Positions 4,722 through 18,046 of a stretch of DNA of 64,000 nucleotides are shown here, in pieces. The stretch spans positions 3,720,001 to 3,784,000 of the forward strand of contig NZ_JAVDYG010000001.1 of assembly GCF_031458325.1 (NCBI RefSeq), in the 5' to 3' direction. The notes beneath the pieces are model-generated. The model did no database searches. It worked only from the letters and a program-made list of their open reading frames with translations, and had not been told where the DNA came from. The position numbers and the translations under genes were made by a program. Origin of the DNA: Nocardioides marmoribigeumensis. Lineage in GTDB: Bacteria; Actinomycetota; Actinomycetes; Propionibacteriales; Nocardioidaceae. Positions within the stretch are counted from its first letter, which is position 1. Every line of letters starts with the position of its first letter.

Positions 4722-4757
4722 TTGCAGAGTCTCCCTCCATACCGTACGGTATGGAGG
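4722..4757 (+). promoter_or_regulatory. mce operon promoter with palindromic TetR-type operator
   Basis: A perfect 24-bp palindrome occupies 4734-4757; its 18-bp core CCATACCGTACGGTATGG (4737-4754) is identical to the palindrome at 17428-17445 beside the TetR gene. A plausible promoter is superimposed: -35 TTGCAG at 4722-4727, a 17-base spacer, and -10 TACGGT at 4745-4750 inside the palindrome. A bound repressor would block this -10. The first mce gene starts about 60 bases downstream. Confidence 0.75.
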
Positions 4758-4817
4758 CGATCTCGCCAGCAGAACGACCGGGTGCGCCCCGGTCCCGACG
4801 GGCACACGGGGGCAGGG

Positions 4818-5600
4818 ATGTCGACGATGGGCGCACGGAGCGTGTCCGTGCTGGAGTCCTTCGGCGACTTCTTCGCGTTCGTCGGCGCCGTGGTCCGCAA
4901 GCTGCCGAGGCGGCCGTTGAACACCGCCGAGGCCACCCGTCAGGCCTGGATCATCATGCGGGTCATCATCGTCCCGACCGGCCTGGTCTCGATCCCGCTC
5001 GGCGCCGTCGTCGCGCTCCAGATCGGCAGCCTCACCCAGCAGCTCGGAGCGCAGAGCTTCGCCGGGGCCGCCTCCGTCGTCGCGATCGTCCGTGAGGGCG
5101 CGCCGCTGGCCACCTCGCTGCTCCTCGCGGGGGCGAGCGGCTCGGCGATCTGCGCCGACTTCGGCGCCCGGGTGATCCGCGAGGAGGTCGACGCGCTCCG
5201 GGTGCTCGGCATCGACGTCGAGCACCGGCTGATCGTGCCGCGCGTGGTCGCGGCGATCTTCGTCGGCGGCGTGGTCACGGGCCTGGTGATGGGGGTCGGC
5301 ATCGCGGGGGGCTACGTCTTCAACGTCGTGCTGCAGGGCGGCACGAGCGGGGTCTACGTGCAGTCGTTCAGCTCGCTCGCGGCGGTCGCCGACGTCTCGG
5401 TCTCCCTGCTCAAGGGGATGGTCTTCGGCGGGATCGCCGCGGTCGTCGGCGCGTTCAAGGGCCTGCACGTCAAGGGCGGCCCGAAGGGCGTCGGGCAGGC
5501 GGTCAACGAGTCGGTCGTGCTCACCTTCCTGTTCCTGTTCACGCTCAACTACCTCATCACCACCGTCTACTTCCAGGTCGTCCCGCAGGGGGCGCGATGA
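4818..5600 (+). CDS. yrbE1A: MlaE/YrbE-family permease, first mce permease
   Basis: Integral membrane subunit of an Mce lipid importer (260 residues). It has several hydrophobic helices and the MlaE-family segment SGSAICADFGARVIREEVDA, which includes the conserved E-E-(V/I)-D-A-L motif that contacts the ATPase. I choose ATG 4818 after GGCAGGG; ATG 4827 is also possible, and the longer open frame back to 4722 runs through the promoter. It overlaps the next permease by ATGA and heads an eight-gene translationally coupled operon (4818-12961). Confidence 0.92.
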   Translation: MSTMGARSVSVLESFGDFFAFVGAVVRKLPRRPLNTAEATRQAWIIMRVIIVPTGLVSIPLGAVVALQIGSLTQQLGAQSFAGAASVVAIVREGAPLATSLLLAGASGSAICADFGARVIREEVDALRVLGIDVEHRLIVPRVVAAIFVGGVVTGLVMGVGIAGGYVFNVVLQGGTSGVYVQSFSSLAAVADVSVSLLKGMVFGGIAAVVGAFKGLHVKGGPKGVGQAVNESVVLTFLFLFTLNYLITTVYFQVVPQGAR

Positions 5601-6412
5601 GCTGGCTGAGCTCGACCACCGAGCGCCTGGAGCTGATGGGTCACCAGGTCCGGTTCTACGGCCGGGCGGTCGCGGCGACCCCGCGCACGCTGCGGCACTA
5701 CCGCCGCGAGGTGTGGAACGTCCTCGCCGACGCGACCTTCGGCACCGGCGCGCTGGCGATCGTCGGCGGCACGGTCGGGGTGATGGTCGCGCTGTCCTAC
5801 GCCGTCGGCGCCGAGGTCGGCCTGCAGAGCCACGCCTCGCTGGACCAGATCGGCGCGGGCAACTTCACCGCGTTCCTCTCGGCGTACTTCAACACCCGTG
5901 AGTCCGCGCCGCTGATCGCCGGCGTCGCCCTGGCCGCGACCATCGGCTGCGGCTTCACCGCCCAGCTCGGCGCGATGCGGATCAGCGAGGAGGTCGACGC
6001 CCTCGAGGTGATGGCGATCCCGTCGGTGCCGTTCCTGGTCACCACGCGGATGATCGCGGCGGTGATCGCGGTCGTGCCGCTCTACGCCATCGGGATCTTC
6101 GCCTCCTACCTCGCCACCCGCATGGTCACCACGCTCAGCTACGGCCAGTCTCCGGGCACCTACGACCACTACTTCCTGCAGTACCTCGCGCCCGTCGACG
6201 TCCTCTGGTCCTTCGGCAAGGTGCTGGTCTTCGCGGCCGTGATCATCCTGGTGCACTGCTACCACGGCTTCCACGCCAAGGGCGGGCCCGCCGGCGTGGG
6301 CCTCGCGGTCGGCCGCGCGATCCAGACCTCGATCGTCGCCCTGGTCGTCATGGACTTCTTCATGTCGTTCGCGATCTGGGGGTCGACGACGACGGTGAGG
6401 ATCACCGGATGA
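5597..6412 (+). CDS. yrbE1B: MlaE/YrbE-family permease, second mce permease
   Basis: Second permease of the Mce importer, 271 residues. It carries the paired motif RISEEVDALEVMAIP at roughly 131-145 and multiple transmembrane segments. ATGA overlaps couple it to the permease upstream and to the first Mce gene downstream. YrbE A and B subunits act together with an MceG ATPase that is not encoded in this window. Confidence 0.93.
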   Translation: MSWLSSTTERLELMGHQVRFYGRAVAATPRTLRHYRREVWNVLADATFGTGALAIVGGTVGVMVALSYAVGAEVGLQSHASLDQIGAGNFTAFLSAYFNTRESAPLIAGVALAATIGCGFTAQLGAMRISEEVDALEVMAIPSVPFLVTTRMIAAVIAVVPLYAIGIFASYLATRMVTTLSYGQSPGTYDHYFLQYLAPVDVLWSFGKVLVFAAVIILVHCYHGFHAKGGPAGVGLAVGRAIQTSIVALVVMDFFMSFAIWGSTTTVRITG

Positions 6413-7557
6413 GGCACGCCTACCCGCCCGAGACCCCGGCGGAGGCACGGGCCCTGCGCGTCACCGGGGTGGCCTGGCTGGTGGTCCTCGCGCTCCTGGT
6501 CGCGCTGTCGGTGGCGACCTACGCCAAGGCCTTCGACGGCCACGTGACGGTCGCGGTCGACGCCCCGCGCACCGGCCTGCAGCTCAACGTCGGCGGCGAC
6601 GTGCGCATGAACGGCGCGATCGTGGGCCGCATCTCCGACGTGGCGGCGACCGACAAGGGCGCACGCGTCGAGCTGCAGCTCCAGGGCGACAAGGCCGACC
6701 GCATCCCACGGACGGCGACCGCCACGATCCTGCCCACCACCCTGTTCGGCCAGAAGTACGTCGAGCTCCGGTCCTCGGCGGACCCCGCCGACCGTGGCCA
6801 CGTGGTCGACGGGACCGTGCTGCGGGCCGCCCGCGACAGCGCGTCGGTCGAGCTCACCCAGGTGCTCGACGACCTGCAGCCGCTGCTGACCGCCGTACGC
6901 CCCGCGGAGCTGGCGACGCTGCTGCACGAGACCGCGGCCGGCCTCGACGGGCAGGGCGCGACCCTGGCGCGGCTGATCGACGAGGGCGGGCTCTACCTCG
7001 GCGAGCTCAACGAGGAGCGACCGCAGCTGGTGCGCGACCTGCGGCTGCTCGACGAGGTGTCGGGGCAGTACGCCCGCAACGTGCCGGCGTTCCTCGGGGT
7101 CCTCGACCAGACCACGCGCACCCTGACGGCGGTGACCCGCGGCGCCGAGCTGGCCCGGGCGCTGCGCGAGGTCTCCGGTGCCGCGGACGCCGGCACCGCG
7201 CTGATGGCCGCCTCCCGGCGCAACGCCGCGCGGGCAGCCGCCCTGTCGCGGCCGACGCTGGAGCTGCTGGCGGAGTACTCACCGGAGTTCCCCTGCCTGG
7301 TCTCCGGGTTCCTCGGCGTCCGGGACAGCTCGGCCGCCCAGGTCAAGGGCGGCTCGGTCGAGGGCTACTTCACCGCCGGCCAGCAGGTCCGCGGCTACCG
7401 GCCGAGCGACCGGCTGAGGATGGGCGACCTCGGCACCGGTCCCGCCTGCCGCGGCCTGCCGCACCCGAAGGTCCCCTACCCGGCGGTCGACGTCGACGAC
7501 GGCGTCTCGCCCGAGATCGACCGGTCACGCAACCCCGACACCGGGGGAGCGCGGTGA
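6409..7557 (+). CDS. mceA: Mce family protein, position A
   Basis: Lipid-carrier protein (382 residues) with an N-terminal membrane anchor at about residues 19-40 and the MlaD/Mce domain at about 45-120 (VDAPRTGLQLNVGGDVRMNG, then a strand-rich segment). A long helical region follows, as expected for Mce proteins that assemble into a tunnel between membrane and envelope. The A designation rests on being first of six. ATGA overlap upstream, GTGA overlap downstream. Confidence 0.9.
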   Translation: MRHAYPPETPAEARALRVTGVAWLVVLALLVALSVATYAKAFDGHVTVAVDAPRTGLQLNVGGDVRMNGAIVGRISDVAATDKGARVELQLQGDKADRIPRTATATILPTTLFGQKYVELRSSADPADRGHVVDGTVLRAARDSASVELTQVLDDLQPLLTAVRPAELATLLHETAAGLDGQGATLARLIDEGGLYLGELNEERPQLVRDLRLLDEVSGQYARNVPAFLGVLDQTTRTLTAVTRGAELARALREVSGAADAGTALMAASRRNAARAAALSRPTLELLAEYSPEFPCLVSGFLGVRDSSAAQVKGGSVEGYFTAGQQVRGYRPSDRLRMGDLGTGPACRGLPHPKVPYPAVDVDDGVSPEIDRSRNPDTGGAR

Positions 7558-8627
7558 GCAGCGTCGGCCCCGGCACCCGCGCCTCGGCGGTGCGCGTGGC
7601 CCTGACGACAGTGCTCTCGGTGGCCACCGTGCTCGTGCTGGTCGCCACGATCCGCCCGCTGCGGCTGGGTGGCGGCGACGAGACCTTCACCGCGCTGTTC
7701 ACCTCGGCCAGCCGGATCCGCCCCGGCGCACCGGTGATGGTCGGCGGGGTCCGGGTGGGCCGCGTCGACGAGGTCTCGCTCGACCGCGACGCCACCGCGC
7801 GTGTGTCGTTCCAGGTCGAGAAGGACGTCGACGTGACCACCCGCACGCGCGCGGCGATCCGCTACCTCGACCTCGTGGGCGGGCGCTACCTCGCGCTCAC
7901 CGACCCCGCCAGGGACGGTGCCGCTCCGTCGGCCGCGCAGGACCCGGACCACCCCATCCCGACCACGCGCACCGAGCCCGCGCTCGACCTCAACGCGCTG
8001 CTCAACGGCTTCAAGCCGCTCTTCTCGGCCCTCGACCCCCGGGACGTCAACGCCCTCGCCGGCGACATCATCCGGACCTTCCAGGGCGAGGGGATGACGG
8101 TGCGCGAGCTGATCGCGCGCACCGGGTCGCTGACCTCGGGGCTCGCCGACCGCGACCGGCTGATCGGCTCGCTTCTCGACAGCCTGGGCACGACGGTCAG
8201 CACGGTCGCCAGGCGTCACGACCAGCTCGAGCAGCTGATCGACGACGTCGCGTCGTTCGCGGTCGGCCTCGCCTCGGACCGCCGGTCGATCAGCGCCGCG
8301 CTCCAGCACCTCGAGGTGATGACGCGGCTCTCGGCCGACCTGCTGCACGACGCCCGGCCGTCGCTGAAGGAGGACATCGCCCAGCTGCGGGCCGTCGCGC
8401 GTCTGCTGGGGACCGGCACCGGGCGTGGCCAGGTCGCCCACGCCCTGGACCACCTGCCCCGCAAGCTCGAGCGGCTGGCCCGCACCGCGTCGTACGGCTC
8501 GTGGTTCAACTACTACGTCTGCTCGGTGAAGTTCCGCGTCGACAGCGGGACACCGATCGCGCCCGAGGTGCGCGACCTGCTCAACCGCCTGAGCCTCAAC
8601 GACTCGGCGAAGAGGTGTGACCCGTGA
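7554..8627 (+). CDS. mceB: Mce family protein, position B
   Basis: 357 residues with an N-terminal anchor (about 12-32), an Mce domain containing RPGAPVMVGGVRVGRVDEV, and a long alpha-helical C-terminal part. GTG start overlapping the previous stop. Second of the six Mce subunits; conserved position rather than any distinguishing motif gives the letter. Confidence 0.9.
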   Translation: MSSVGPGTRASAVRVALTTVLSVATVLVLVATIRPLRLGGGDETFTALFTSASRIRPGAPVMVGGVRVGRVDEVSLDRDATARVSFQVEKDVDVTTRTRAAIRYLDLVGGRYLALTDPARDGAAPSAAQDPDHPIPTTRTEPALDLNALLNGFKPLFSALDPRDVNALAGDIIRTFQGEGMTVRELIARTGSLTSGLADRDRLIGSLLDSLGTTVSTVARRHDQLEQLIDDVASFAVGLASDRRSISAALQHLEVMTRLSADLLHDARPSLKEDIAQLRAVARLLGTGTGRGQVAHALDHLPRKLERLARTASYGSWFNYYVCSVKFRVDSGTPIAPEVRDLLNRLSLNDSAKRCDP

Positions 8628-9592
8628 GCGGGGCGCTGACTCCTCGTGCGCGGGTGGGCCTCTACGGCTCGGTCGCCCTGGTGCTTCTGGTCCTGCTGAC
8701 CCAGCGTCTCGACGCGCTCGCGCAGGTGCTGCGCGGCGGCGACCACGTGACGGCGTACTTCACCGACTCCACGGGCCTCTCGCCCGGCGACCGGGTCGAG
8801 GTCTCGGGCATCGCGGTCGGACGCGTGACGTCGGTCGACATCGACGGCCCGCGCATCCGCGTCGAGGCGCGCGTGGACGACCCGGTGCGGCTGGGCGACC
8901 GCACGACGGCCGCGATCAAGGTCGGCAACCTGCTCGGCAGCAAGTACCTCGAGCTCGAGCCAGCCGGCCAGGGCACGCTGGCCGGCGCGATCCCGACCAG
9001 CCGCACCACGCCGGCGTACGACGTCGTGCAGGCGGTCAGCGACCTGTCCGACACGGTCGAGGAGATCGACACCCGGCAGCTCGCGCAGGCGCTCGACACC
9101 GTGGCCTCGACCTTCCGCGGCGCGGGCCCCGACGTGCGCCGCGCGGTCTCCGGGGTCTCGCGCCTGAGCCGCGTGGTGGCCTCGCGCGACGAGGAGCTGC
9201 GGTCGCTGCTCAGCGGCACCGAGACGGTCGTGGCCTCCCTCGACGACAGCAAGGAGTCGCTGTCCCGCTTCGTGCGGGCCGCCTCCCTGCTGATGGCGGA
9301 GGTCGACCGACAGCGCGACACGATCAGCCGCCTGATCGACAACAGCCTGGCGCTCTCGCGCGAGGTGCGCGGCCTGGTCCGGGACAACGAGGAGCAGATC
9401 CGGCCGGCGCTGGCCAACATCACCCGGGTCGTCGACCTGCTGCGTGGGCGCCAGGCGAAGCTCGCGCAGACGGTGCACAACCTCGCGACCTTCGCGCGGG
9501 TCTTCGTCGACACGATCGGCAGCGGGCCGTGGTTCGACTCCTACCTCGCCAACGTGCCCGACCAGGTCTCGACGACGGGGCCCGAGCGATGA
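8624..9592 (+). CDS. mceC: Mce family protein, position C
   Basis: 322 residues, the shortest of the set. N-terminal hydrophobic anchor (about 10-28), an Mce domain with GDRVEVSGIAVGRVTSVDID and GNLLGSKYLELEP, then a helical tail. GTGA overlap with mceB and ATGA overlap with mceD. Confidence 0.9.
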   Translation: MSGALTPRARVGLYGSVALVLLVLLTQRLDALAQVLRGGDHVTAYFTDSTGLSPGDRVEVSGIAVGRVTSVDIDGPRIRVEARVDDPVRLGDRTTAAIKVGNLLGSKYLELEPAGQGTLAGAIPTSRTTPAYDVVQAVSDLSDTVEEIDTRQLAQALDTVASTFRGAGPDVRRAVSGVSRLSRVVASRDEELRSLLSGTETVVASLDDSKESLSRFVRAASLLMAEVDRQRDTISRLIDNSLALSREVRGLVRDNEEQIRPALANITRVVDLLRGRQAKLAQTVHNLATFARVFVDTIGSGPWFDSYLANVPDQVSTTGPER

Positions 9593-10797
9593 GCCGCCGC
9601 CTGCTCGTCCTCGTCGTGGCCCTGGCGGTGGTGCTGGGCGGCGCGGCGCTGCTCACCACGCGTGACGGCACGCGCCGGGTCAGCGCGGTGCTGCCGTCCG
9701 CGGTCAGCCTCTTCCCGGGCTCGGACGTGAAGATCATGGGCGTCCGCGTCGGCAAGGTCGTCTCGGTGACCCCGCGCCCCGACGACGTGCTCGTCGAGAT
9801 GGAGTACGACGACCAGTACTCCCTGCCCGCCGACGCCCAGGCGATCGTCATCTCCCCGTCGGTGATCGGCGACCGCTACGTCCAGCTCACGCCGGCGTAC
9901 GTCGACGGGCCGCGCCTGGCGGCCGGCGCCACGATCCCGCGCAGCCGCACGGCCGTGCCCGTCGAGCTGGACGACATGGTGGCCTCGACGACCCGCCTGG
10001 CCGACGCGCTGGGCCCGCAGGGCGCCAACCGCGGCGGCGCGGTCTCGCGCCTGCTCGACGTGGCAGCGTCCAACCTGACCGGCCTCGGCGCCCAGGTCAA
10101 CGCCTCGCTGCGCGACGTCAGCGCCGCCAGCGACACGTTCGCCGAGGCGGCACCAGGCCTGCGCCGCACCGTCCGGAGCGGCGCGGGCCTGACCGGCGCG
10201 CTCGCGGAGTACGACGCCGCCGTGCGCTCGTTCGACACCCACCTGTCGCGCGTCGCCCGCAACCTCGCCGCGGACCGGGGCGACCTGTCCCAGCTGCTCG
10301 CGAGCCTCGCCCGGTCGCTCGGCGAGGTGGCGGTCTTCGTCCGCGACAACCGTGCCTCGCTGCGGCACGACGTCGACGGGCTGCGGTCGGTGACCGGCAA
10401 GCTCCGTGCGGAGCGCAAGGCGCTGGTGCAGGTGACCGACCTGGTGCCGCTGGGCTTCACCAACCTGATCGAGACCTACGACGCCAGGACCAAGGCGGTG
10501 CGCACGCGCGCGAACTTCGGGGAGATCGCCCAGGCGGCCGACAAGGTGGTCTGCTTCGAGCTGGAGAAGCAGCTGGGGCCGTCGATCAAGGACTCCTGCG
10601 CGGTCGTCTCCGCCCTCGTCGGCGGGCTGCCGCTGCCGGGGACCGGCTCCGGGGGTGGCCCCGGTGGTGGGGGGAGCGGCGGCGTGCCAGGGCTGCCCGG
10701 CGTGCCCCCGTTGCCGGCGGGCGGCCCGTCGTCGGGCGACCCCCTGGGCGACCTGCTGGGCGTGCCCACGCTGCGGGCCATGGAGGTGGCGCGATGA
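9589..10797 (+). CDS. mceD: Mce family protein, position D
   Basis: 402 residues from ATG 9589, which overlaps the mceC stop; an upstream open frame back to 8617 is only a shadow of mceC. It has an anchor at about 3-22, an Mce domain with GSDVKIMGVRVGKVVSV, a helical region, and then a low-complexity Gly/Pro/Leu-rich tail over the last ~50 residues. Such Pro/Gly-rich tails are typical of MceC and MceD proteins and may reach through the cell wall. Confidence 0.9.
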   Translation: MSRRLLVLVVALAVVLGGAALLTTRDGTRRVSAVLPSAVSLFPGSDVKIMGVRVGKVVSVTPRPDDVLVEMEYDDQYSLPADAQAIVISPSVIGDRYVQLTPAYVDGPRLAAGATIPRSRTAVPVELDDMVASTTRLADALGPQGANRGGAVSRLLDVAASNLTGLGAQVNASLRDVSAASDTFAEAAPGLRRTVRSGAGLTGALAEYDAAVRSFDTHLSRVARNLAADRGDLSQLLASLARSLGEVAVFVRDNRASLRHDVDGLRSVTGKLRAERKALVQVTDLVPLGFTNLIETYDARTKAVRTRANFGEIAQAADKVVCFELEKQLGPSIKDSCAVVSALVGGLPLPGTGSGGGPGGGGSGGVPGLPGVPPLPAGGPSSGDPLGDLLGVPTLRAMEVAR

Positions 10798-11840
10798 GAC
10801 GCCTCGCCGCACTCCTCGCCGGGTGTCTGCTGCTCACCGGCTGCGACTTCGCCGGCCTCCAGGACATGTCGCTGCCGGGTGGGCCCGACCTCGGCAGCAG
10901 CCCCTACGAGGTCACCGCCGAGTTCGAGGACGTGCTCGGCCTGGCCGCGCACTCGGCGGTCAAGCTCGACGGCGTGACGGTCGGCGAGGTCGAGGAGATC
11001 CGCCGCCGGGGCTGGCACGCCGAGGTGACCCTGCGGCTGCCCGCCGACGTCCGGCTGTCCCGCACGGCGACCGCACGCGTCCAGCAGACCAGCCTGCTGG
11101 GCGAGAAGTTCGTCTCCCTCGAGCCCGGGTCCGGCAGTGGCCGGCTGGCCGACGGCGACCGCATCGGGCTGCGCTCCACCAGCCGCGGCGTCGAGGTCGA
11201 GGAGGTCCTCGGCGCCACCTCGATGCTGCTCAACGGCGGCGGCCTCGACCAGGTGCGCACGATCTCCACCGAGCTGCAGACCGCCCTGGCGAACGGCACC
11301 GACACCCGCCGCTTCCTGCGCGAGCTGACCACGTTCATCACCACCGTCGACCAGCAGCGCGAGCGCATCGTGTCGATCATGGCGAACCTCGATCGCCTGG
11401 CCCGCTCGGTCAACCGGGACCCGCAGGTGGTCGACCGGGCGCTGCGCGACCTCGCCCCGGCGCTGCGCGTGCTCACCGCGCAGCGCAAGCCGCTGGTCCG
11501 GATGCTCGACCGGCTCGGCCGCTTCTCCCAGGTCACCACGCGCGTCGTGCGCGAGTCCGGCCGCGACCTGGTCGCCGACCTGCGGGCGCTGCAGCCGGTC
11601 CTCACCCAGCTGCGCCGGTCCGGCAAGCAGCTGCCCGAGTCGGTGGAGGCGATCCTGTCCTTCCCGTTCCCCGACGAGGTCCTCCACGCGGCCAGGGGCG
11701 ACTACGTCAACCTCGCGGTCGAGATGGACCTCACGCCCTTCACGTTCCTCGGCAACGCGACCGGCGCCGACCTGGGCGGCTCGCTCGGCCTGCGGGCCGT
11801 CGTACCCCAGGACGCGGAGCGGCCCAGGGGGAGCCGATGA
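10794..11840 (+). CDS. mceE: Mce family lipoprotein, position E
   Basis: 348 residues. Instead of a simple anchor it begins with a lipoprotein signal peptide, MRRLAALLAGCLLLTGC, with lipidated Cys17 expected, which is the hallmark of the MceE subunit. The Mce domain and the long helical region follow. ATGA overlaps on both sides. Confidence 0.92.
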   Translation: MRRLAALLAGCLLLTGCDFAGLQDMSLPGGPDLGSSPYEVTAEFEDVLGLAAHSAVKLDGVTVGEVEEIRRRGWHAEVTLRLPADVRLSRTATARVQQTSLLGEKFVSLEPGSGSGRLADGDRIGLRSTSRGVEVEEVLGATSMLLNGGGLDQVRTISTELQTALANGTDTRRFLRELTTFITTVDQQRERIVSIMANLDRLARSVNRDPQVVDRALRDLAPALRVLTAQRKPLVRMLDRLGRFSQVTTRVVRESGRDLVADLRALQPVLTQLRRSGKQLPESVEAILSFPFPDEVLHAARGDYVNLAVEMDLTPFTFLGNATGADLGGSLGLRAVVPQDAERPRGSR

Positions 11841-12961
11841 CGGCCTCGGTGCGGCTCCGGCTGCTGGTCTTCGCGCTCGTGGGCGGCCTCGCGGTCGTCG
11901 TGGCCGGCGTCCGCTACGCCGGGCTGTGGAGCCTGGTCAGCGCGCCGACCTACTCCGTGCGCGTCGACCTGCCGCAGTCCGGCGGCATCTTCGACCGCGC
12001 GGAGGTGACCTACCGCGGCGTGACCGTCGGGCGCGTCGACGACGTCGACTTCCGCCGCGACGGCGTCGTCGTCACCCTCGACATCGACCGTCGCTGGAGG
12101 ATCCCCCAGGACGTGCGGGCCGAGGTGCACAACCGCTCCGCGGTGGGGGAGCAGTACGTCGACCTGGTGCCCCGGGCGTCCTCCGGCCCGTCCCTGCACG
12201 ACGGGGACGTGATCGCCGCGGCCGCGACGAGCGTGCCCGTGACCACCGCCGAGCTGCTGCTGTCGCTCGACCGGTTCGTCGACTCGGTCCCGCAGGCGGC
12301 GCTGCGCACCACCGTCGACGAGCTCTCCCGGGCCTTCGAGGGCACGGGCGACGACTTCCGGAGGTTCGTCGCCAACGCCCGCACCATCCTGGTCGAGGCG
12401 CAGCGGTCGCTGCCCGCCACCCGCGCCCTGCTGCGTGACGGCGGCACGGTGCTCCAGACCCAGTCCGACCAGGCAGTGGTGATCGCCTCCGCGCTGCGCA
12501 ACCTCGACGCCCTCACGCTCGTGCTCTCCGACCGCACCGGCGACCTGCGCACGATCCTGCGCGATGCGGTGCCCGCCGCCCGGCAGCTGCGGGCGATGTT
12601 CACCGGCCTCACCCCGGTGCTCCCGCCGCTCCTGGGCAACATCGCCGCCCTCGCCTCGGTCACCACCGACCGCATCGCCGGGCTCGAGGAGGGGCTGGTC
12701 ACGATCCCCTACGCCCTGGCCAGCGCGATCACCCCCGGCCGCGGGGAACGGGCCCACTTCGCCTTCGAGGGGACCCAGGACCCCAAGGCCTGCGAGCGCG
12801 GCTACACCCCTCCGCGCCGGTGGCGCTCGCCGCACGACACGTCGTACGCGCCGATGGACGACCGGTTCGGCTGCACCCAGCGCGGCACCACCCTGCCCCG
12901 CGGCTCCAGCTCCGAGCTCGACCGCGACCCCGAGGGCCGGCACACCCGCAGCTCGCCCTGA
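11837..12961 (+). CDS. mceF: Mce family protein, position F
   Basis: Last of the six Mce subunits, 374 residues from ATG 11837, which overlaps the mceE stop. N-terminal anchor (about 8-28), Mce domain with FDRAEVTYRGVTVGRVDDV, helical domain, and a polar Arg-rich tail. The operon appears to end here. In M. tuberculosis extra Mce-associated genes often follow, but none is present; a DUF2231 gene comes next after 60 bases. Confidence 0.9.
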   Translation: MTASVRLRLLVFALVGGLAVVVAGVRYAGLWSLVSAPTYSVRVDLPQSGGIFDRAEVTYRGVTVGRVDDVDFRRDGVVVTLDIDRRWRIPQDVRAEVHNRSAVGEQYVDLVPRASSGPSLHDGDVIAAAATSVPVTTAELLLSLDRFVDSVPQAALRTTVDELSRAFEGTGDDFRRFVANARTILVEAQRSLPATRALLRDGGTVLQTQSDQAVVIASALRNLDALTLVLSDRTGDLRTILRDAVPAARQLRAMFTGLTPVLPPLLGNIAALASVTTDRIAGLEEGLVTIPYALASAITPGRGERAHFAFEGTQDPKACERGYTPPRRWRSPHDTSYAPMDDRFGCTQRGTTLPRGSSSELDRDPEGRHTRSSP

Positions 12962-13021
12962 CCTGTCCGCGGACCGCGCCCACCGGTTGACCCTCCCGGG
13001 CCCCGCCGCGACGATGAGGCG

Positions 13022-13588
13022 ATGAGCCTCTCGGACCGCACGCCCGTCCACATCGACCTCGTCCGCCGCATCGAGGGAGCCCAGGGCCTCGACCCTGCTG
13101 TCCACGCGATCGCGCCCGTCGTCCGGCAGGCGTTCGGTGTGGGCAGGCGCGGGGAGGTGCTGCGCGGCGACTGGCTGGGCCACGCCCTGCACCCGCTGCT
13201 GACCGACCTGGTGATCGGCTCGTGGACCTCGGCCACCCTCCTCGACCTGGTCGGCGGTCGCGAGTCCGGCAAGGCCGCGCAGCGCCTGGTCGGGATCGGT
13301 CTGCTCGCCTTCGCGCCGACCGCGTGGAGCGGCTGGGCCGAGTGGTCCGAGGCCGGCCCCCGGGAGCAGCGCGTCGGGCTGGTGCACGTCGGCACCAACG
13401 CCGCCGCGGCCGGGGTCTACCTCGCCTCGTGGAAGGCGCGTCGCAGGGGCGAGCGGGTCAGGGGTGCCGCGCTCGCGCTCGCGGGTGCCGCGGTGTCGGG
13501 GTCGGCTGCCTACCTCGGCGGTCACCTCGCCCTCGCGCGCAAGGTCGGCACGCACGACCCCGTGTTCGACGACGCCGTGACCTCCTAG
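13022..13588 (+). CDS. DUF2231 membrane protein
   Basis: 188-residue protein with four predicted hydrophobic segments between about residues 55 and 180. The family signature GHALHPLLTDLVIGSWTSA begins near residue 56. Function of the family is unknown; members are often small redox-linked or cofactor-linked membrane proteins. The stop is followed 1 base later by the next gene's GTG, so the two are likely co-transcribed. Confidence 0.82.
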   Translation: MSLSDRTPVHIDLVRRIEGAQGLDPAVHAIAPVVRQAFGVGRRGEVLRGDWLGHALHPLLTDLVIGSWTSATLLDLVGGRESGKAAQRLVGIGLLAFAPTAWSGWAEWSEAGPREQRVGLVHVGTNAAAAGVYLASWKARRRGERVRGAALALAGAAVSGSAAYLGGHLALARKVGTHDPVFDDAVTS

Positions 13589-13589
13589 C

Positions 13590-14450
13590 GTGGTCCCCAC
13601 CCCTGACCGGCTGCGCATCCTCCTGGTGACCTCGGTCGAGGAACTCGGCCTCGACGAGGAGACCCCGCTCCTGGCCGACGCCCTGCGACGACGAGGCGCA
13701 GAGGTCGCGATCGTGCCCTGGGGCCCGGGGACCGACTGGGCAGCCGCCGATCTGGTCGTCGTACGCACGCCGTGGGACTACACGCCTCGCCGGGAGGAGT
13801 TCCTGGCGTGGGCCGGGTCCGTCCCCGCACCGTTGGCCAACCCGGCGCACGTCCTGCGGTGGAACACGCACAAGGGCTACCTCGTCGAGCTGGCCGCGGC
13901 CGGGGTGCCGGTCGTGCCGACCCGGCTTGTGACCGCCGGCAGCCCGACTCCCGACGCGCAGTGGTTCGCCCGGGCGGGCGACGAGGTCGTGGTGAAGCCG
14001 GCGGTCTCGGTCGGGGCGATCGGCGCGATGCGGGCGGCGTACGACGACCCGGCGCTGGTCTCCCACGTCGCCGACCTGCTGACCGGCCAGGACGTGCTCG
14101 CCCAGCCGTTCCTGGGCTCGGTCACCGACCGCGGCGAGACCTCGGTGCTGTTCGCCCGCGACCGGGTCAGCCACGCGGTGCGCAAGGTGCCGGCGGCAGG
14201 GGACTACCGCGTCCACGAGGAGTACGGCGGCGTGAACACCGTCGTCGAGCCCGACCCGGCCGAGCTCGAGGTCGCCCGGGCGGCGCTGGCCGCGTGCCCG
14301 GGACCGAGGCTCTACGCCCGCGTCGACCTGGTGCAGGGCGACGACGGGCCGCTCGTGATGGAGGTCGAGCTCACCGAGCCGGCGCTCTACCTCGTCGAGC
14401 ACCCGCCCGCCGCCGACACGTTCGCCGAGGCGGTGCTGGGGTGGCGCTGA
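13590..14450 (+). CDS. ATP-grasp domain protein (RimK/CycD-like)
   Basis: 286-residue ATP-dependent ligase-type protein. An N-terminal pre-ATP-grasp region (RLRILLVTSVEELGLDEETP; VVRTPWDYTPRREEF) is followed by the nucleotide-binding fold, with EVVVKPAVSVGAIG near residue 132 and the metal-binding end VMEVELTEPALYL near 257. Similar proteins are annotated as cycloserine-synthesis-like or glutathione-synthetase-like ligases; the substrates here are unknown. GTG start immediately after the DUF2231 stop. Its 3' end overlaps the lipoprotein gene by 10 bases. Confidence 0.8.
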   Translation: MVPTPDRLRILLVTSVEELGLDEETPLLADALRRRGAEVAIVPWGPGTDWAAADLVVVRTPWDYTPRREEFLAWAGSVPAPLANPAHVLRWNTHKGYLVELAAAGVPVVPTRLVTAGSPTPDAQWFARAGDEVVVKPAVSVGAIGAMRAAYDDPALVSHVADLLTGQDVLAQPFLGSVTDRGETSVLFARDRVSHAVRKVPAAGDYRVHEEYGGVNTVVEPDPAELEVARAALAACPGPRLYARVDLVQGDDGPLVMEVELTEPALYLVEHPPAADTFAEAVLGWR

Positions 14451-14911
14451 GAGCGGCCGCCGTCGTCGCGGCGGTCCTCGCCCTGGCCGGCTGCGGCGAC
14501 GACGACCTCACGACCGCGGACCGTCCGTCCCCGCATCCCCGGCCCAGCACGGCGGGCTACTGCGACGACCTGCCAGGCGTCAGCGGCGACCCCGGCGTCC
14601 TCCTGGGCACGGACTGGTCGGGGGAGGACCACGACGTCGGTGACCCGGTCGTCGTGCTCGCCTGCGCCGCGACCAACGAGCAGGGCACGTTGTCCCTCGA
14701 GGCCGACGGGACCGGCATCACGATCACCCCGGACCGGGTCCCTCTCGAGGACCTGCGCGACGGGATGGCCGAGTTTCGCGTGACGGTCGAGCGGGGTGCC
14801 CACGGCACGCTGGCCGTGCGCGAGGAGAGCCGGGCGATCAGCGGCACCATGCCCGGGCCCCGGGTCGTCACCGACGACGAGGGCTGGCACCTCGAGCGGC
14901 CGGCCGGCTGA
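14441..14911 (+). CDS. Small secreted lipoprotein, function unknown
   Basis: 156 residues from GTG 14441. The N-terminus is a lipoprotein signal peptide ending in LALAGC, then an acidic and Pro-rich linker, then a compact polar domain with two Cys residues (about 43 and 76) that could form a disulfide. I recognise no family. The start overlaps the end of the ATP-grasp gene by 10 bases, so translation is probably coupled. A strong hairpin follows 34 bases after the stop. Confidence 0.72.
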   Translation: MALRAAAVVAAVLALAGCGDDDLTTADRPSPHPRPSTAGYCDDLPGVSGDPGVLLGTDWSGEDHDVGDPVVVLACAATNEQGTLSLEADGTGITITPDRVPLEDLRDGMAEFRVTVERGAHGTLAVREESRAISGTMPGPRVVTDDEGWHLERPAG

Positions 14912-14945
14912 AGGTGCACGCCCAGGTCTTGGAAGGCGCCCCCGC

Positions 14946-14985
14946 CGCTCAAGTGAGCCGGCCGCGAGGCCGGCTCACTTGAGCG
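14946..14985. terminator. Bidirectional terminator hairpin, 18-bp stem
   Basis: A perfect inverted repeat with 18-bp arms (14946-14963 and 14968-14985) and a GCGA loop sits where two convergent genes end. It contains the last codons and stop of the minus-strand lipocalin-like gene. There is no T-tract, as is usual for high-GC actinobacterial terminators. Confidence 0.8.
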
Positions 14986-16018
14986 CCACCATCTCGTGCA
15001 TCGTGCGGCCGGTCTCCTTGAGCACCTCGTCCTCGAGCCGCACGGTCAGGTCGAAGTCCGACTCGAAGCGGAAGTAGCCCGGCCGGCCGAGCAGCTTGTT
15101 GACCAGCGGCTTGACCGCACGGGACCGGACCACCGGCACCATCTCGAGGAAGTCGTTGGCGTGCACGATCCGCTGCACGGCGAAGGTCAGGTCGACCTCG
15201 TCGGACTGCAGCGACAGCGTCGAGGGGTAGTCGCGGTTGGCGACCTCGTTGAAGACCCGCGGCCCCTCGAGCGAGGTCACCTCGCCCGTGCTCACCACGA
15301 TCTCCGAGCCGCGGGCCACCATCAGCGGCATCGAGGCGTGCGCGCCGTACTTCGGCGTGGTGTGCACGTTGGCGTAGATGACCGTGAGGTCGTCGGTGTA
15401 GAGCCGGCCCCAGTACCAGTGGTCGATGATCCGCTTCATGTCGCCCACGCCCCAGTTGTGGTCGTGGTAGCCGATGCCGTCGGCCTGGATCGTCTCGCCG
15501 TGGATCGTCACGGTGCCGCTCACCCGCGCGCGCGGCGCCCCGACGCACCACGCGAAGTAGTCGCGGTCGCCGTACGTCGTGCGGCCGCCGCCGGGCATCC
15601 AGGTCGGCACCTCGCTGTCGAAGGTGAGGTCGAAGGTGATGCCGTCCTCGTCGAGGTGCAGGCGGTGCACCGGCAGGCGCCCCTCGGGGAACTCCGCGCG
15701 AGCCCAGTTGTGACCCACGCGCACGTCGCACTGCTCGCGCGAGGCGCTGGCGTCGGAGTCGGCGTAGTGCTTGACCACCTCCAGGCGCGTGCCGTCGGGG
15801 CGGTAGACGTGCAGCTCGACGCCGGGCTTGCGCTGGATCAGCTCGCGGGTCTGGATGAAGCCCACCACGATGTGGCCGTCGGACAGGCGCGCGTCGAAGT
15901 ACCAGTGCTCGAAGGCCAGCTTGTGGTCGTCCAGGTGGGCCGCGTTGCCCTCGGGGCCGACGGGCGCGACGACGGCGTCACGGCGACCGGGGCCGGTCCA
16001 GGTCTCGACGATGTCCAT
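14975..16018 (-). CDS. Lipocalin-like protein of the AttH/CrtC (carotenoid hydratase-like) family
   Basis: 347 residues. The diagnostic segment GIGYHDHNWGVGDM, shared by AttH and carotenoid 1,2-hydratase type lipocalin-fold proteins, lies near residue 195, and the protein is rich in aromatic beta strands throughout. Family members act on hydrophobic ligands such as terpenoids or lipids; the substrate here is unknown. The ATG at 16016-16018 was chosen because the frame upstream runs through a tandem repeat. It is the second gene after the MpaB-type oxygenase, likely under the palindrome-controlled promoter at 17428. Confidence 0.78.
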   Translation of the reverse strand: MDIVETWTGPGRRDAVVAPVGPEGNAAHLDDHKLAFEHWYFDARLSDGHIVVGFIQTRELIQRKPGVELHVYRPDGTRLEVVKHYADSDASASREQCDVRVGHNWARAEFPEGRLPVHRLHLDEDGITFDLTFDSEVPTWMPGGGRTTYGDRDYFAWCVGAPRARVSGTVTIHGETIQADGIGYHDHNWGVGDMKRIIDHWYWGRLYTDDLTVIYANVHTTPKYGAHASMPLMVARGSEIVVSTGEVTSLEGPRVFNEVANRDYPSTLSLQSDEVDLTFAVQRIVHANDFLEMVPVVRSRAVKPLVNKLLGRPGYFRFESDFDLTVRLEDEVLKETGRTMHEMVALK

Positions 16019-16053
16019 AGTTCTCCTCGAATAATTGTGGTCTCGACAAGCTC

Positions 16054-16109
16054 GACCAGCGACCAGCGACCAGCGACCAGCGACCAGCGACCAGCGACCA
16101 GCGACTAGC
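16054..16109. repeat. Heptanucleotide tandem repeat between oxygenase and lipocalin-like genes
   Basis: Seven perfect copies of GACCAGC (16054-16102) and an eighth changed copy, GACTAGC (16103-16109). The T change in that copy creates the TAG stop of the minus-strand oxygenase gene. An imperfect palindrome resembling a REP unit (GGTCTCGACAAGCTCGACC, 16039-16057) overlaps the first copy of the array. Confidence 0.9.
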
Positions 16110-17400
16110 GACGCAGCGAGCTGCTCGCGTCGAACTCGGCCTGGCGGCCCTCCATCTGGAAGTCCCACCAGTTCTTGCGGTGGGCGCGCATCACGCGGTC
16201 GTGCAGCTGCTTGAGGCCGGGCAGGCGGCGGGCGAGCTCGGTGGCGAACACCAGCGGCCAGCGCGCGGCGAGGATGAGGATCCACGGGAACGCCGGCAGC
16301 ATGTCGTACTGCTTGCGGGTCGCGGGCGCCATCCAGAGCGCGCAGTAGGCGCTGTAGACGCGGTAGTTGTACGCCGCTCGCAGCCGGGCGAGCCCCTTCT
16401 GGTGCTCGCGGGGCATGAACGCGCGCGGGAACGACTCGATCAGCTCCTTGCCGTGGTCCCCGGCGTCGTAGGACCGGGCGGCCGTGGAGAGCGCCAGCAC
16501 CTGGAGGCACTCGCGGACGGTCTCGGGGATCCACTGTGGCTGCACGCCGAGCAGGTGACCCATGTACTTGTTGAAGTGCTGCAGCGCGCGCATCTCGCGC
16601 GGCGTCGTCTGGTAGCCGAGCAGGGACAAGGCGAGCGAGGGCGCGACGCTGCCGCCGATCTGGGTGAGCATCGCCCACGTCTGGCTGATCGGCAGGCCGT
16701 AGGCCTCCATGTCCCACTCGTCGTGCTCGCCCACGCGCTTGCGGACCGCGACGTGCATGACGCGCACCTGCATCGCGGTGGTGCGGCCGGCCGAACCGGG
16801 GGTGAACAGCGCGGCCGGCTCGGAGACGTCGATCCAGAACTTCGAGGTCTCGAGGAAGCGACGCAGCGCGTTGTCGCCGGCGTACCCACCCGCGAGCGAC
16901 AGGGGAGTGGCGACCCCGGCCTCGGTGTAGACCTCGAGGGTGATCGCGCCGGCGACGGAGAAGAGCATCGTGCCCCACCGGCGCCAGATCGCGGCGCCGA
17001 GCTCGACCTGCTCGCGGTCGACCCAGTCGGGGACGGTGTCGAACTCCTGGAACAGCACGCGCATCGACTCGGGTGCGTCCGGCACGGAGTCGATGCCGTC
17101 GCGCAGCGCCTCGTCGAGCATCTGGCGTCCGCGACGGTGGCCGATCTCGCCGAAGAACACGTCGGCCACGTAGCGCTCGGCGACCGGGTCCCCGGAGTAG
17201 TGGTCGTCGCACAGCATCCGCGCCTGCTCGTCGGTGGGGAAGAGCCGGTGGCCCAGGCGGGCGGCGATCCGCTCCAGCCGCTGCCAGGTGGGCTCCTGCT
17301 TGCCCTCCCAGTAGCGGAAGTGGCTGGGACAGCGCCACTCGCGCTCGTCCTCGGGTGTGGTGGTCGAGGCCGTGGCCCTGCTGTCCTGCTGCGTCGTCAT
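16105..17400 (-). CDS. MpaB/latex-clearing-protein family (DUF2236) oxygenase-like protein
   Basis: 431 residues with the DUF2236/MPAB_Lcp catalytic-domain layout. The segments DDHYSGDPVAERYVADVFFG, MQVRVMHVAVRKR (HVAVR being the typical heme-site region) and GYQTTPREM fit that family. Proteins of this group are b-type heme oxygenases acting on hydrophobic polymers or lipids, but this one's substrate is unknown. ATG 17400 starts just downstream of the shared palindrome and of the promoter TTGCCA (17461-17456), 18 bases, TACGGT (17437-17432). It precedes the lipocalin-like gene in the same direction. Confidence 0.8.
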   Translation of the reverse strand: MTTQQDSRATASTTTPEDEREWRCPSHFRYWEGKQEPTWQRLERIAARLGHRLFPTDEQARMLCDDHYSGDPVAERYVADVFFGEIGHRRGRQMLDEALRDGIDSVPDAPESMRVLFQEFDTVPDWVDREQVELGAAIWRRWGTMLFSVAGAITLEVYTEAGVATPLSLAGGYAGDNALRRFLETSKFWIDVSEPAALFTPGSAGRTTAMQVRVMHVAVRKRVGEHDEWDMEAYGLPISQTWAMLTQIGGSVAPSLALSLLGYQTTPREMRALQHFNKYMGHLLGVQPQWIPETVRECLQVLALSTAARSYDAGDHGKELIESFPRAFMPREHQKGLARLRAAYNYRVYSAYCALWMAPATRKQYDMLPAFPWILILAARWPLVFATELARRLPGLKQLHDRVMRAHRKNWWDFQMEGRQAEFDASSSLRR

Positions 17401-17427
17401 GGGTCCTCCGTCGCCCGGTCGGATGTT

Positions 17428-17461
17428 CCATACCGTACGGTATGGTCCGGACGTCTGGCAA
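17428..17461. promoter_or_regulatory. Palindromic operator and divergent promoter between TetR and oxygenase genes
   Basis: The 18-bp palindrome CCATACCGTACGGTATGG (17428-17445) is identical to the core at 4737-4754. It contains mirrored -10 hexamers TACGGT on both strands (17436-17441 plus; 17437-17432 minus) sharing the central TA. For the minus strand a -35 TTGCCA lies at 17461-17456 with an 18-base spacer. The plus-strand -35 region is poor. This is the expected self-regulatory site of the adjacent TetR. Confidence 0.75.
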
Positions 17462-17470
17462 GATGTCACC

Positions 17471-18046
17471 GTGACCAGCACCGCCTCCTCGGGCACCGGA
17501 CGCCTGTCGATCGACGACTGGACCGAGCGCGCGCTCCAGCTGCTCATGGACGAGGGCGTGGGGGCCCTCAAGATCGCCCGGCTCTGCCGCGAGCTCGGGG
17601 TCACCAAGGGCAGCTTCTACTGGCACTTCGCCGACCTCGAGGCGCTGCGCACCGCGGTGGCCAAACGCTGGACCGAGAGGACGCGCGCCGAGCTCGACGA
17701 GCTCCGCGAGCTCGGCACCCTCCCGCCGCTCGAGCGCATCCGGATCATGGCGGCCGGGCTCGTCGAGGACCGCGCCTGGAACGTCGAGCGCACCCTGCGC
17801 GAGTGGGCCCGCACCGACGCGTCGGTCGCGGCGACCATCGGCGAGAGCGAGCAGCACGTCTTCGGCCTGCTCAACGACGCCTTCCTCGAGCTCGGCCACC
17901 CCGCCGGCGCGGCACGCATGCGCGCGGGTCTCCTGACCTACGCCGGCATCGGGTTCGCGCACGGCCAGGCGTCCCTGCCCCGCGTGACCATGGACGACAT
18001 CGGCGACCTCGTGGAGTTCCTCAGCAAGGAGACCGGAACCACCTGA
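17471..18046 (+). CDS. TetR-family transcriptional regulator
   Basis: 191 residues from GTG 17471; the open frame upstream passes through the operator and is not coding. The N-terminal helix-turn-helix is at about 33-52 (KIARLCRELGVTKGSFYWHF), the standard TetR signature. The C-terminal ligand domain has no recognisable effector motif. It is divergent from the MpaB/AttH genes, and the palindrome between them also covers the mce promoter, so all these genes probably form its regulon, with a lipid or terpenoid ligand inferred. Confidence 0.9.
   Translation: MTSTASSGTGRLSIDDWTERALQLLMDEGVGALKIARLCRELGVTKGSFYWHFADLEALRTAVAKRWTERTRAELDELRELGTLPPLERIRIMAAGLVEDRAWNVERTLREWARTDASVAATIGESEQHVFGLLNDAFLELGHPAGAARMRAGLLTYAGIGFAHGQASLPRVTMDDIGDLVEFLSKETGTT

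What the first reader, a model, noticed from the sequence alone, without database searches (positions are those of the whole stretch)
4734..17445. One palindrome links the mce operon to a TetR/MpaB/AttH locus 12.7 kb away
The 18-bp sequence CCATACCGTACGGTATGG occurs at 4737-4754 (extended to a perfect 24-mer at 4734-4757) and at 17428-17445. The first covers the -10 of the eight-gene mce operon; the second lies between a TetR gene and a divergent oxygenase/lipocalin-like pair. An 18-bp identity in non-coding DNA at just these two promoters is hard to explain by chance. Seen: the sequences. Known: TetR proteins bind palindromes beside their genes. Inferred: a single regulon for import and modification of one hydrophobic compound.
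Basis: partly seen in the sequence, partly recalled or inferred. Interest (0 to 1): 0.78.

Follow-up and report, generated by a model that had tools for sequence, protein, structure and literature searches.

The report
TetR operator joining mce and oxygenase genes
One DNA "switch" sequence occurs exactly twice in this actinobacterium's genome, in front of a lipid-import (mce) operon and beside a repressor gene with its oxygenase genes, and the same pairing recurs in relatives even where the switch itself has changed, so one repressor very probably controls import and oxidation of a still unknown greasy compound.

Summary
The looser CATAC-N6-GTATG has one further copy, on the start codon of a second MPAB-type gene. 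Comparative genomics supports the regulon. Such palindromes sit both by tetR/mpaB and upstream of yrbEA in five other Nocardioidaceae; in one Aeromicrobium the two sites are 1.9 Mb apart. Three rhodococci have the mce-side site. Control mce operons lack it (0/22). In three more genomes the palindrome has changed to CGTACA...TGTACG at both places. Operator base 6 tracks residue 46 of the TetR recognition helix (K mostly with C, R with A), though with only two independent switches. Best explanation: the TetR protein (17471-18046) silences the divergent mpaB-crtC promoter and the mce promoter until it binds a hydrophobic ligand. Binding and ligand are untested. It is a new member of a known kind (compare KstR/mce4 and Mce3R/mce3); I found no published description in the open-licence library searched.

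The parts
4734..4757 (.). Operator 1: perfect 24-bp palindrome CCTCCATACCGTACGGTATGGAGG upstream of the mce operon (60 bp before the yrbEA ATG)
4722..4750 (+). Possible promoter of the mce operon: TTGCAG (4722-4727), 17-nt spacer, TACGGT (4745-4750) inside the palindrome; inferred, not found by the strict scan
   Evidence: sequence; comparison; negative scan
4818..5600 (+). yrbEA-type MlaE permease, first gene of the mce operon
   Evidence: Pfam MlaE 5e-58
5597..6412 (+). yrbEB-type MlaE permease
   Evidence: Pfam MlaE 1.5e-60
6409..7557 (+). Mce protein 1
7554..8627 (+). Mce protein 2
8624..9592 (+). Mce protein 3
9589..10797 (+). Mce protein 4
10794..11840 (+). Mce protein 5
11837..12961 (+). 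Mce protein 6
14975..16018 (-). CrtC/AttH-type lipocalin-domain protein (347 aa), second gene of the divergent operon
   Evidence: Pfam CrtC 4.8e-6; PDB 7a0q CrtC-domain protein 1e-11
16105..17400 (-). MPAB/Lcp-type oxygenase (431 aa), first gene of the divergent operon; the Lcp residues R164, T168 and H198 are conserved, K167 is E
   Evidence: Pfam MPAB_Lcp_cat 3.9e-13; alignment to rubber oxygenase 5o1m/5o1l
17428..17445 (.). Operator 2: CCATACCGTACGGTATGG between tetR and mpaB
17432..17461 (-). Possible mpaB promoter: TTGCCA (17461-17456), 18-nt spacer, TACGGT (17437-17432) inside the palindrome; inferred
   Evidence: sequence; comparison; negative scan
17471..18046 (+). TetR-family regulator (191 aa); recognition helix 46-52 begins with K46
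   Evidence: Pfam TetR_N; AF2 model pLDDT 88.5

Best explanation
The two palindromes are operators of the TetR-family repressor encoded at 17471-18046. A dimer sits on operator 2, closing the divergent mpaB-crtC promoter (and probably its own), and on operator 1, closing the mce promoter 12.7 kb away; in both cases the site appears to overlie the -10 region. When a hydrophobic compound, or a product of it, binds the repressor, both operons open together. The Mce system then imports the compound, and the MPAB-type oxygenase and CrtC-type protein modify it. Shown: the sites, their uniqueness, their conservation as a pair, and covariation of site and regulator. Inferred: binding, repression, ligand release and the nature of the compound.
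For: (1) Exactly two exact copies in the 4.44-Mb genome, both between genes, one beside the TetR gene. (2) Paired sites in relatives: G144 (L122:4315 upstream of yrbEA and 15496 at mpaB/tetR), G083, G054, G004 and Aeromicrobium sp. Root495 (G140; mce site C1:425443, tetR-mpaB site C1:2362029), plus mce-side sites in three rhodococci. (3) Control: a weight matrix from tetR-side sites alone finds a site 46-113 bp upstream of yrbEA in 6 of 8 TetR-positive genomes (this one included) with the orthologous mce operon, in 0 of 3 TetR-negative genomes with that operon, and in 0 of 19 other mce operons; Fisher p about 5e-5, not corrected for relatedness. (4) TetR and this mce operon co-occur: 8 shared among 14 and 11 carriers of 246 genomes. 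(5) In G170, G205 and G214 both sites have changed to CGTACA...TGTACG together. (6) Residue 46 of the recognition helix tracks operator base 6: R with A on both halves in 5 of 5 close homologs with a site; K with C on both halves in 26 of 46 and never with A on both. (7) In G236 the mce genes follow tetR/mpaB/crtC directly, with operators only at the tetR end.
Against: No binding or expression data exist. K/R switching happened only twice on the tree, so that covariation is not significant alone. Site conservation is incomplete: no site was found upstream of yrbEA in G129 or Dietzia aerolata although tetR and mce are neighbours there, and G149 has only a degenerate one. No consensus sigma-70 promoter was detected. 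The genome holds another TetR (C1 about 4.362 Mb) with a related site, ATACGGTACTGTAT, nearby, so cross-recognition is possible.
Confidence: 0.9

Rival explanations
1. Both sites are bound by a different TetR-family protein of the genome (for example the one at C1 about 4.362 Mb), with the neighbour at 17471 only incidental.
For: Distant TetR homologs use the same CRTAC-N6-GTAYG frame, and another TetR gene in the genome has a nearby ATACGGTACTGTAT.
Against: The site type follows orthologs of the 17471 protein across genera, tracks their recognition-helix residue, and the mce-side site is missing where this TetR is missing.
Confidence: 0.05
2. The TetR acts as an activator, or the distal mce site serves to titrate or loop with the proximal one rather than to repress mce.
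For: The palindrome pair is in cis here and 10-20 kb apart in several relatives.
Against: In Aeromicrobium the sites are about 1.9 Mb apart, and the sites lie where they would block RNA polymerase; most studied TetR proteins repress.
Confidence: 0.08
3. The two copies are a shared repeat (duplicated or mobile palindrome) without regulatory meaning.
For: The genome does hold a dispersed inverted-repeat family of other sequence.
Against: Only two copies, and conservation at orthologous promoters in several genera with joint sequence change.
Confidence: 0.01

Closest known systems
KstR regulon (TetR repressor of cholesterol catabolism incl. mce4) of mycobacteria and rhodococci
   Same: One TetR-family repressor with a palindromic operator links an mce importer to oxidative catabolic genes (PMC1995591 abstract; general knowledge).
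   Different: Different operator (KstR's is TnnAACnnGTTnnA, from general knowledge), a small regulon of two or three sites, and MPAB/CrtC rather than steroid genes.
Mce3R regulon of M. tuberculosis
   Same: TetR-type repressor of an mce operon and lipid-metabolism genes.
   Different: Mce3R is a double TetR protein of about 44 kDa that binds nonpalindromic 25-bp sites (PMC11667970); here a 191-aa single-domain protein and a perfect palindrome.
Latex clearing protein Lcp (rubber oxygenase) and fungal MpaB
   Same: Same Pfam family; heme ligand H198 and R164, T168 conserved (residue roles from general knowledge).
   Different: Lcp K167 is E here, similarity is remote (E 3e-7), and the N-terminus shows no obvious hydrophobic export signal (by eye).
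CrtC carotenoid hydratase / AttH lipocalin-type proteins
   Same: CrtC N-terminal lipocalin domain.
   Different: Far below the NCBIfam cut-off for true CrtC (25 against 400 bits) and for the Rv3169 family (28.8 against 150).

Membership tests
TetR-family one-component regulator | TetR_N helix-turn-helix above the curated cut-off | tested here: met
   37.8 bits against 24
TetR-family one-component regulator | All-helical, nine-helix fold | tested here: met
   AF2 model, nine helices, pLDDT 88.5; Foldseek hits are TetR-family structures, TM 0.4-0.6
TetR-family one-component regulator | Palindromic operator beside its own gene | tested here: met
   (site present; binding not tested)
TetR-family one-component regulator | Ligand-released DNA binding | not testable with these tools
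   needs purified protein and ligand
Mce3R | Double TetR domain, about 400 aa, nonpalindromic site | tested here: not met
   191 aa with one TetR_N domain; perfect palindrome; definition
KstR regulon | AACnnGTT-centred operator | tested here: not met
   The operator is CATACC-N4-GGTATG; KstR motif from general knowledge
Actinobacterial mce operon | Two YrbE permeases followed by six Mce proteins | tested here: met
Lcp/MPAB heme oxygenases | Pfam MPAB_Lcp_cat and heme-pocket R164, T168, H198 of LcpK30 | tested here: met
Lcp rubber oxygenase proper | Distal heme ligand K167 | tested here: not met
   E at that position
CrtC carotenoid 1,2-hydratase | NCBIfam equivalog cut-off | tested here: not met
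   25 bits against 400

The most novel reading that the evidence does not exclude
The regulon serves uptake and breakdown of an isoprenoid or prenylated phenolic lipid (polyprenyl, carotenoid-like, or a prenylquinone/tocopherol). The conserved partners point that way: MPAB/Lcp-type oxygenase and a CrtC-type protein here, plus multicopper oxidase, alpha/beta hydrolase, homogentisate-dioxygenase-like protein and aldehyde dehydrogenase in relatives. This would be a dedicated mce route for a substrate class other than sterols.
Probability: 0.2. Interest if true: 0.7.

Novelty: new member of a known kind. Interest (0 to 1): 0.52.

Why it matters
Most mce transporters have no known substrate. A conserved dedicated repressor with a defined operator gives such an mce operon a partner enzyme set and a ligand-sensing protein, so the substrate can be looked for by screening compounds that release the repressor. 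The operator (CRTACC-N4-GGTAYG, or CRTACA-N4-TGTAYG with R at position 46) also lets the regulon be found in other genomes.

Tried and rejected
Chance repeat or mobile repeat: rejected. The CGTAC-N6-GTACG hits in the genome belong to an unrelated dispersed inverted repeat. The third weak site at mpaB2 (C1:2707337) was considered as a third regulon member: its homologs in G083 and G113 (45-46% identity) lack a site, so it remains only a candidate. A site in G045 (C1:329492) has no visible relation to tetR, mpaB or mce. A strict promoter scan was negative. Literature searches found no description of this regulon; only open-licence papers were searched. Identity with KstR or Mce3R was rejected on domain make-up and operator type. 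Mycobacterial homologs carry the same operator class but sit by different genes (acyl-CoA-dehydrogenase-type, F420-quinone-reductase-type, HgmA-like), so the mce link does not extend to all of them.

Full report
Observation. The palindrome CCATACCGTACGGTATGG is at 4737-4754 and 17428-17445, and the first copy extends to a perfect 24-mer at 4734-4757. The window is bases 3,720,001-3,784,000 of a single 4,440,796-base contig. Only these two exact copies exist in it; one further site with three mismatches lies at C1:2707337. CATAC-N6-GTATG occurs three times genome-wide, at those same three places. No shuffle of the window gave any match.

Setting. Operator 1 ends 60 bp before the ATG of yrbEA, first of eight overlapping mce genes (4818-12961). 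Operator 2 lies in the 70 bp between the TetR gene (17471-18046) and the divergent mpaB (16105-17400) and crtC-like (14975-16018) genes. The third, weak site overlaps the start codon of a second MPAB-type gene.

Comparative test. TetR homologs of 49% identity or more were found in 14 of 246 family genomes, and more distant ones in Rhodococcus, Nocardia, Dietzia, Gordonia, mycobacteria and a Solirubrobacteraceae bin. A CRTAC-N6-GTAYG palindrome lies by many of them (tabulated). In G144, G083, G054, G004 and G140 one such site is by tetR/mpaB and another directly upstream of yrbEA. In G140, which matches Aeromicrobium sp. Root495 (same contig coordinates as the genome of L028), the two are about 1.9 Mb apart, so the link is not a matter of neighbourhood. 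Three rhodococcal genomes show the mce-side site too (L128, L136, L033), before more distant yrbEA genes (about 43% identity).

Control. A weight matrix built only from tetR-side sites was scanned over 400 bp upstream of 30 yrbEA homologs. The orthologous operon (63-100% identity) in TetR-positive genomes had the site in 6 of 8, this genome included. The two exceptions are G236, where mce is fused behind tetR/mpaB/crtC, and G149, which has a degenerate site. TetR-negative genomes with that operon had 0 of 3, and other mce operons 0 of 19. Fisher p is about 5e-5, without correction for relatedness. One of 505 background windows scored 16 or more; that background set includes L134, a locus fetched because it held a match. 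In this genome the two other mce loci have no such site.

Joint change. In G170, G205 and G214 the palindrome is CGTACA...TGTACG, and that altered form lies both near tetR-MCO-mpaB-crtC and upstream of a 49-50%-identical yrbEA. Across homologs, residue 46 (K or R) goes with operator base 6. It is the first residue of recognition helix 46-52 in the model and aligns with TetR residue 38 by the offset. R goes with A on both halves in 5 of 5 close homologs (36% identity or more) with a site; K goes with C on both halves in 26 of 46 and never with A on both, though two K cases have A on one half. The tree shows only two independent switches, both concordant, so this is consistent but not significant alone. 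The rules for choosing sites (nearest within 1.5 kb, at least 5 of 8 bases paired) were set by me after seeing the first sites.

Mechanism. By established TetR-family behaviour, a dimer on each palindrome would block transcription until a ligand binds. TTGCAG-N17-TACGGT (mce) and TTGCCA-N18-TACGGT (mpaB) put the -10 inside the palindrome, and a TTG recurs at nearly the same offset before the palindrome in most mpaB-side relatives. A strict scan is negative, so promoter placement is inferred.

What the regulon handles. MPAB aligns to the rubber oxygenase LcpK30 with R164, T168 and H198 kept and K167 replaced by E. Relatives add a multicopper oxidase, hydrolase, homogentisate-dioxygenase-like protein and aldehyde dehydrogenase. 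A hydrophobic, perhaps isoprenoid or phenolic, substrate is a reasonable guess and no more.

Limits. G129 and Dietzia aerolata have tetR and mce close together without a detectable mce-side site. Mycobacterial homologs sit by other genes. No binding or expression evidence was available. Literature was searched only in open-licence papers.

Verdict. It is a new member of a known kind (TetR-controlled mce regulons such as KstR/mce4 and Mce3R/mce3), with moderate interest because it offers a handle on the substrate of an uncharacterised mce system.

Noticed in passing
genome C1:166129, 739337, 901742, 2683475-2683593, 3107021 and others: Dispersed inverted repeat CGTACTCCGACGTACG ... CGTACGTCGGAGTACG, usually 43 bp apart, at about 20 places in the genome.
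   Followed up: no
genome C1:2707337-2707354 (L140:8338-8355): Weak operator-like site on the start codon of a second MPAB-type gene (404 aa); possible third target, not conserved in two homologs.
   Followed up: partly
genome C1:4362364-4362377 (L006, L141): ATACGGTACTGTAT just upstream of another TetR gene, a variant of the same operator frame.
   Followed up: partly
genome C1:2596901 and C1:676237 (L213, L214): Two further yrbEA/mce loci in the genome that lack the operator.
   Followed up: yes
window 16060-16105: Short tandem repeat of CGACCAG-like units between the crtC-like and mpaB genes.
   Followed up: no
mycobacterial loci such as L049:10556 and L053:10575: TetR homologs there carry CATACCAAAAGGTATG just downstream of tetR; in L049 it lies before an acyl-CoA-dehydrogenase-type gene with F420-quinone-reductase-type and HgmA-like genes nearby: apparently a different regulon with the same operator class.
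   Followed up: partly
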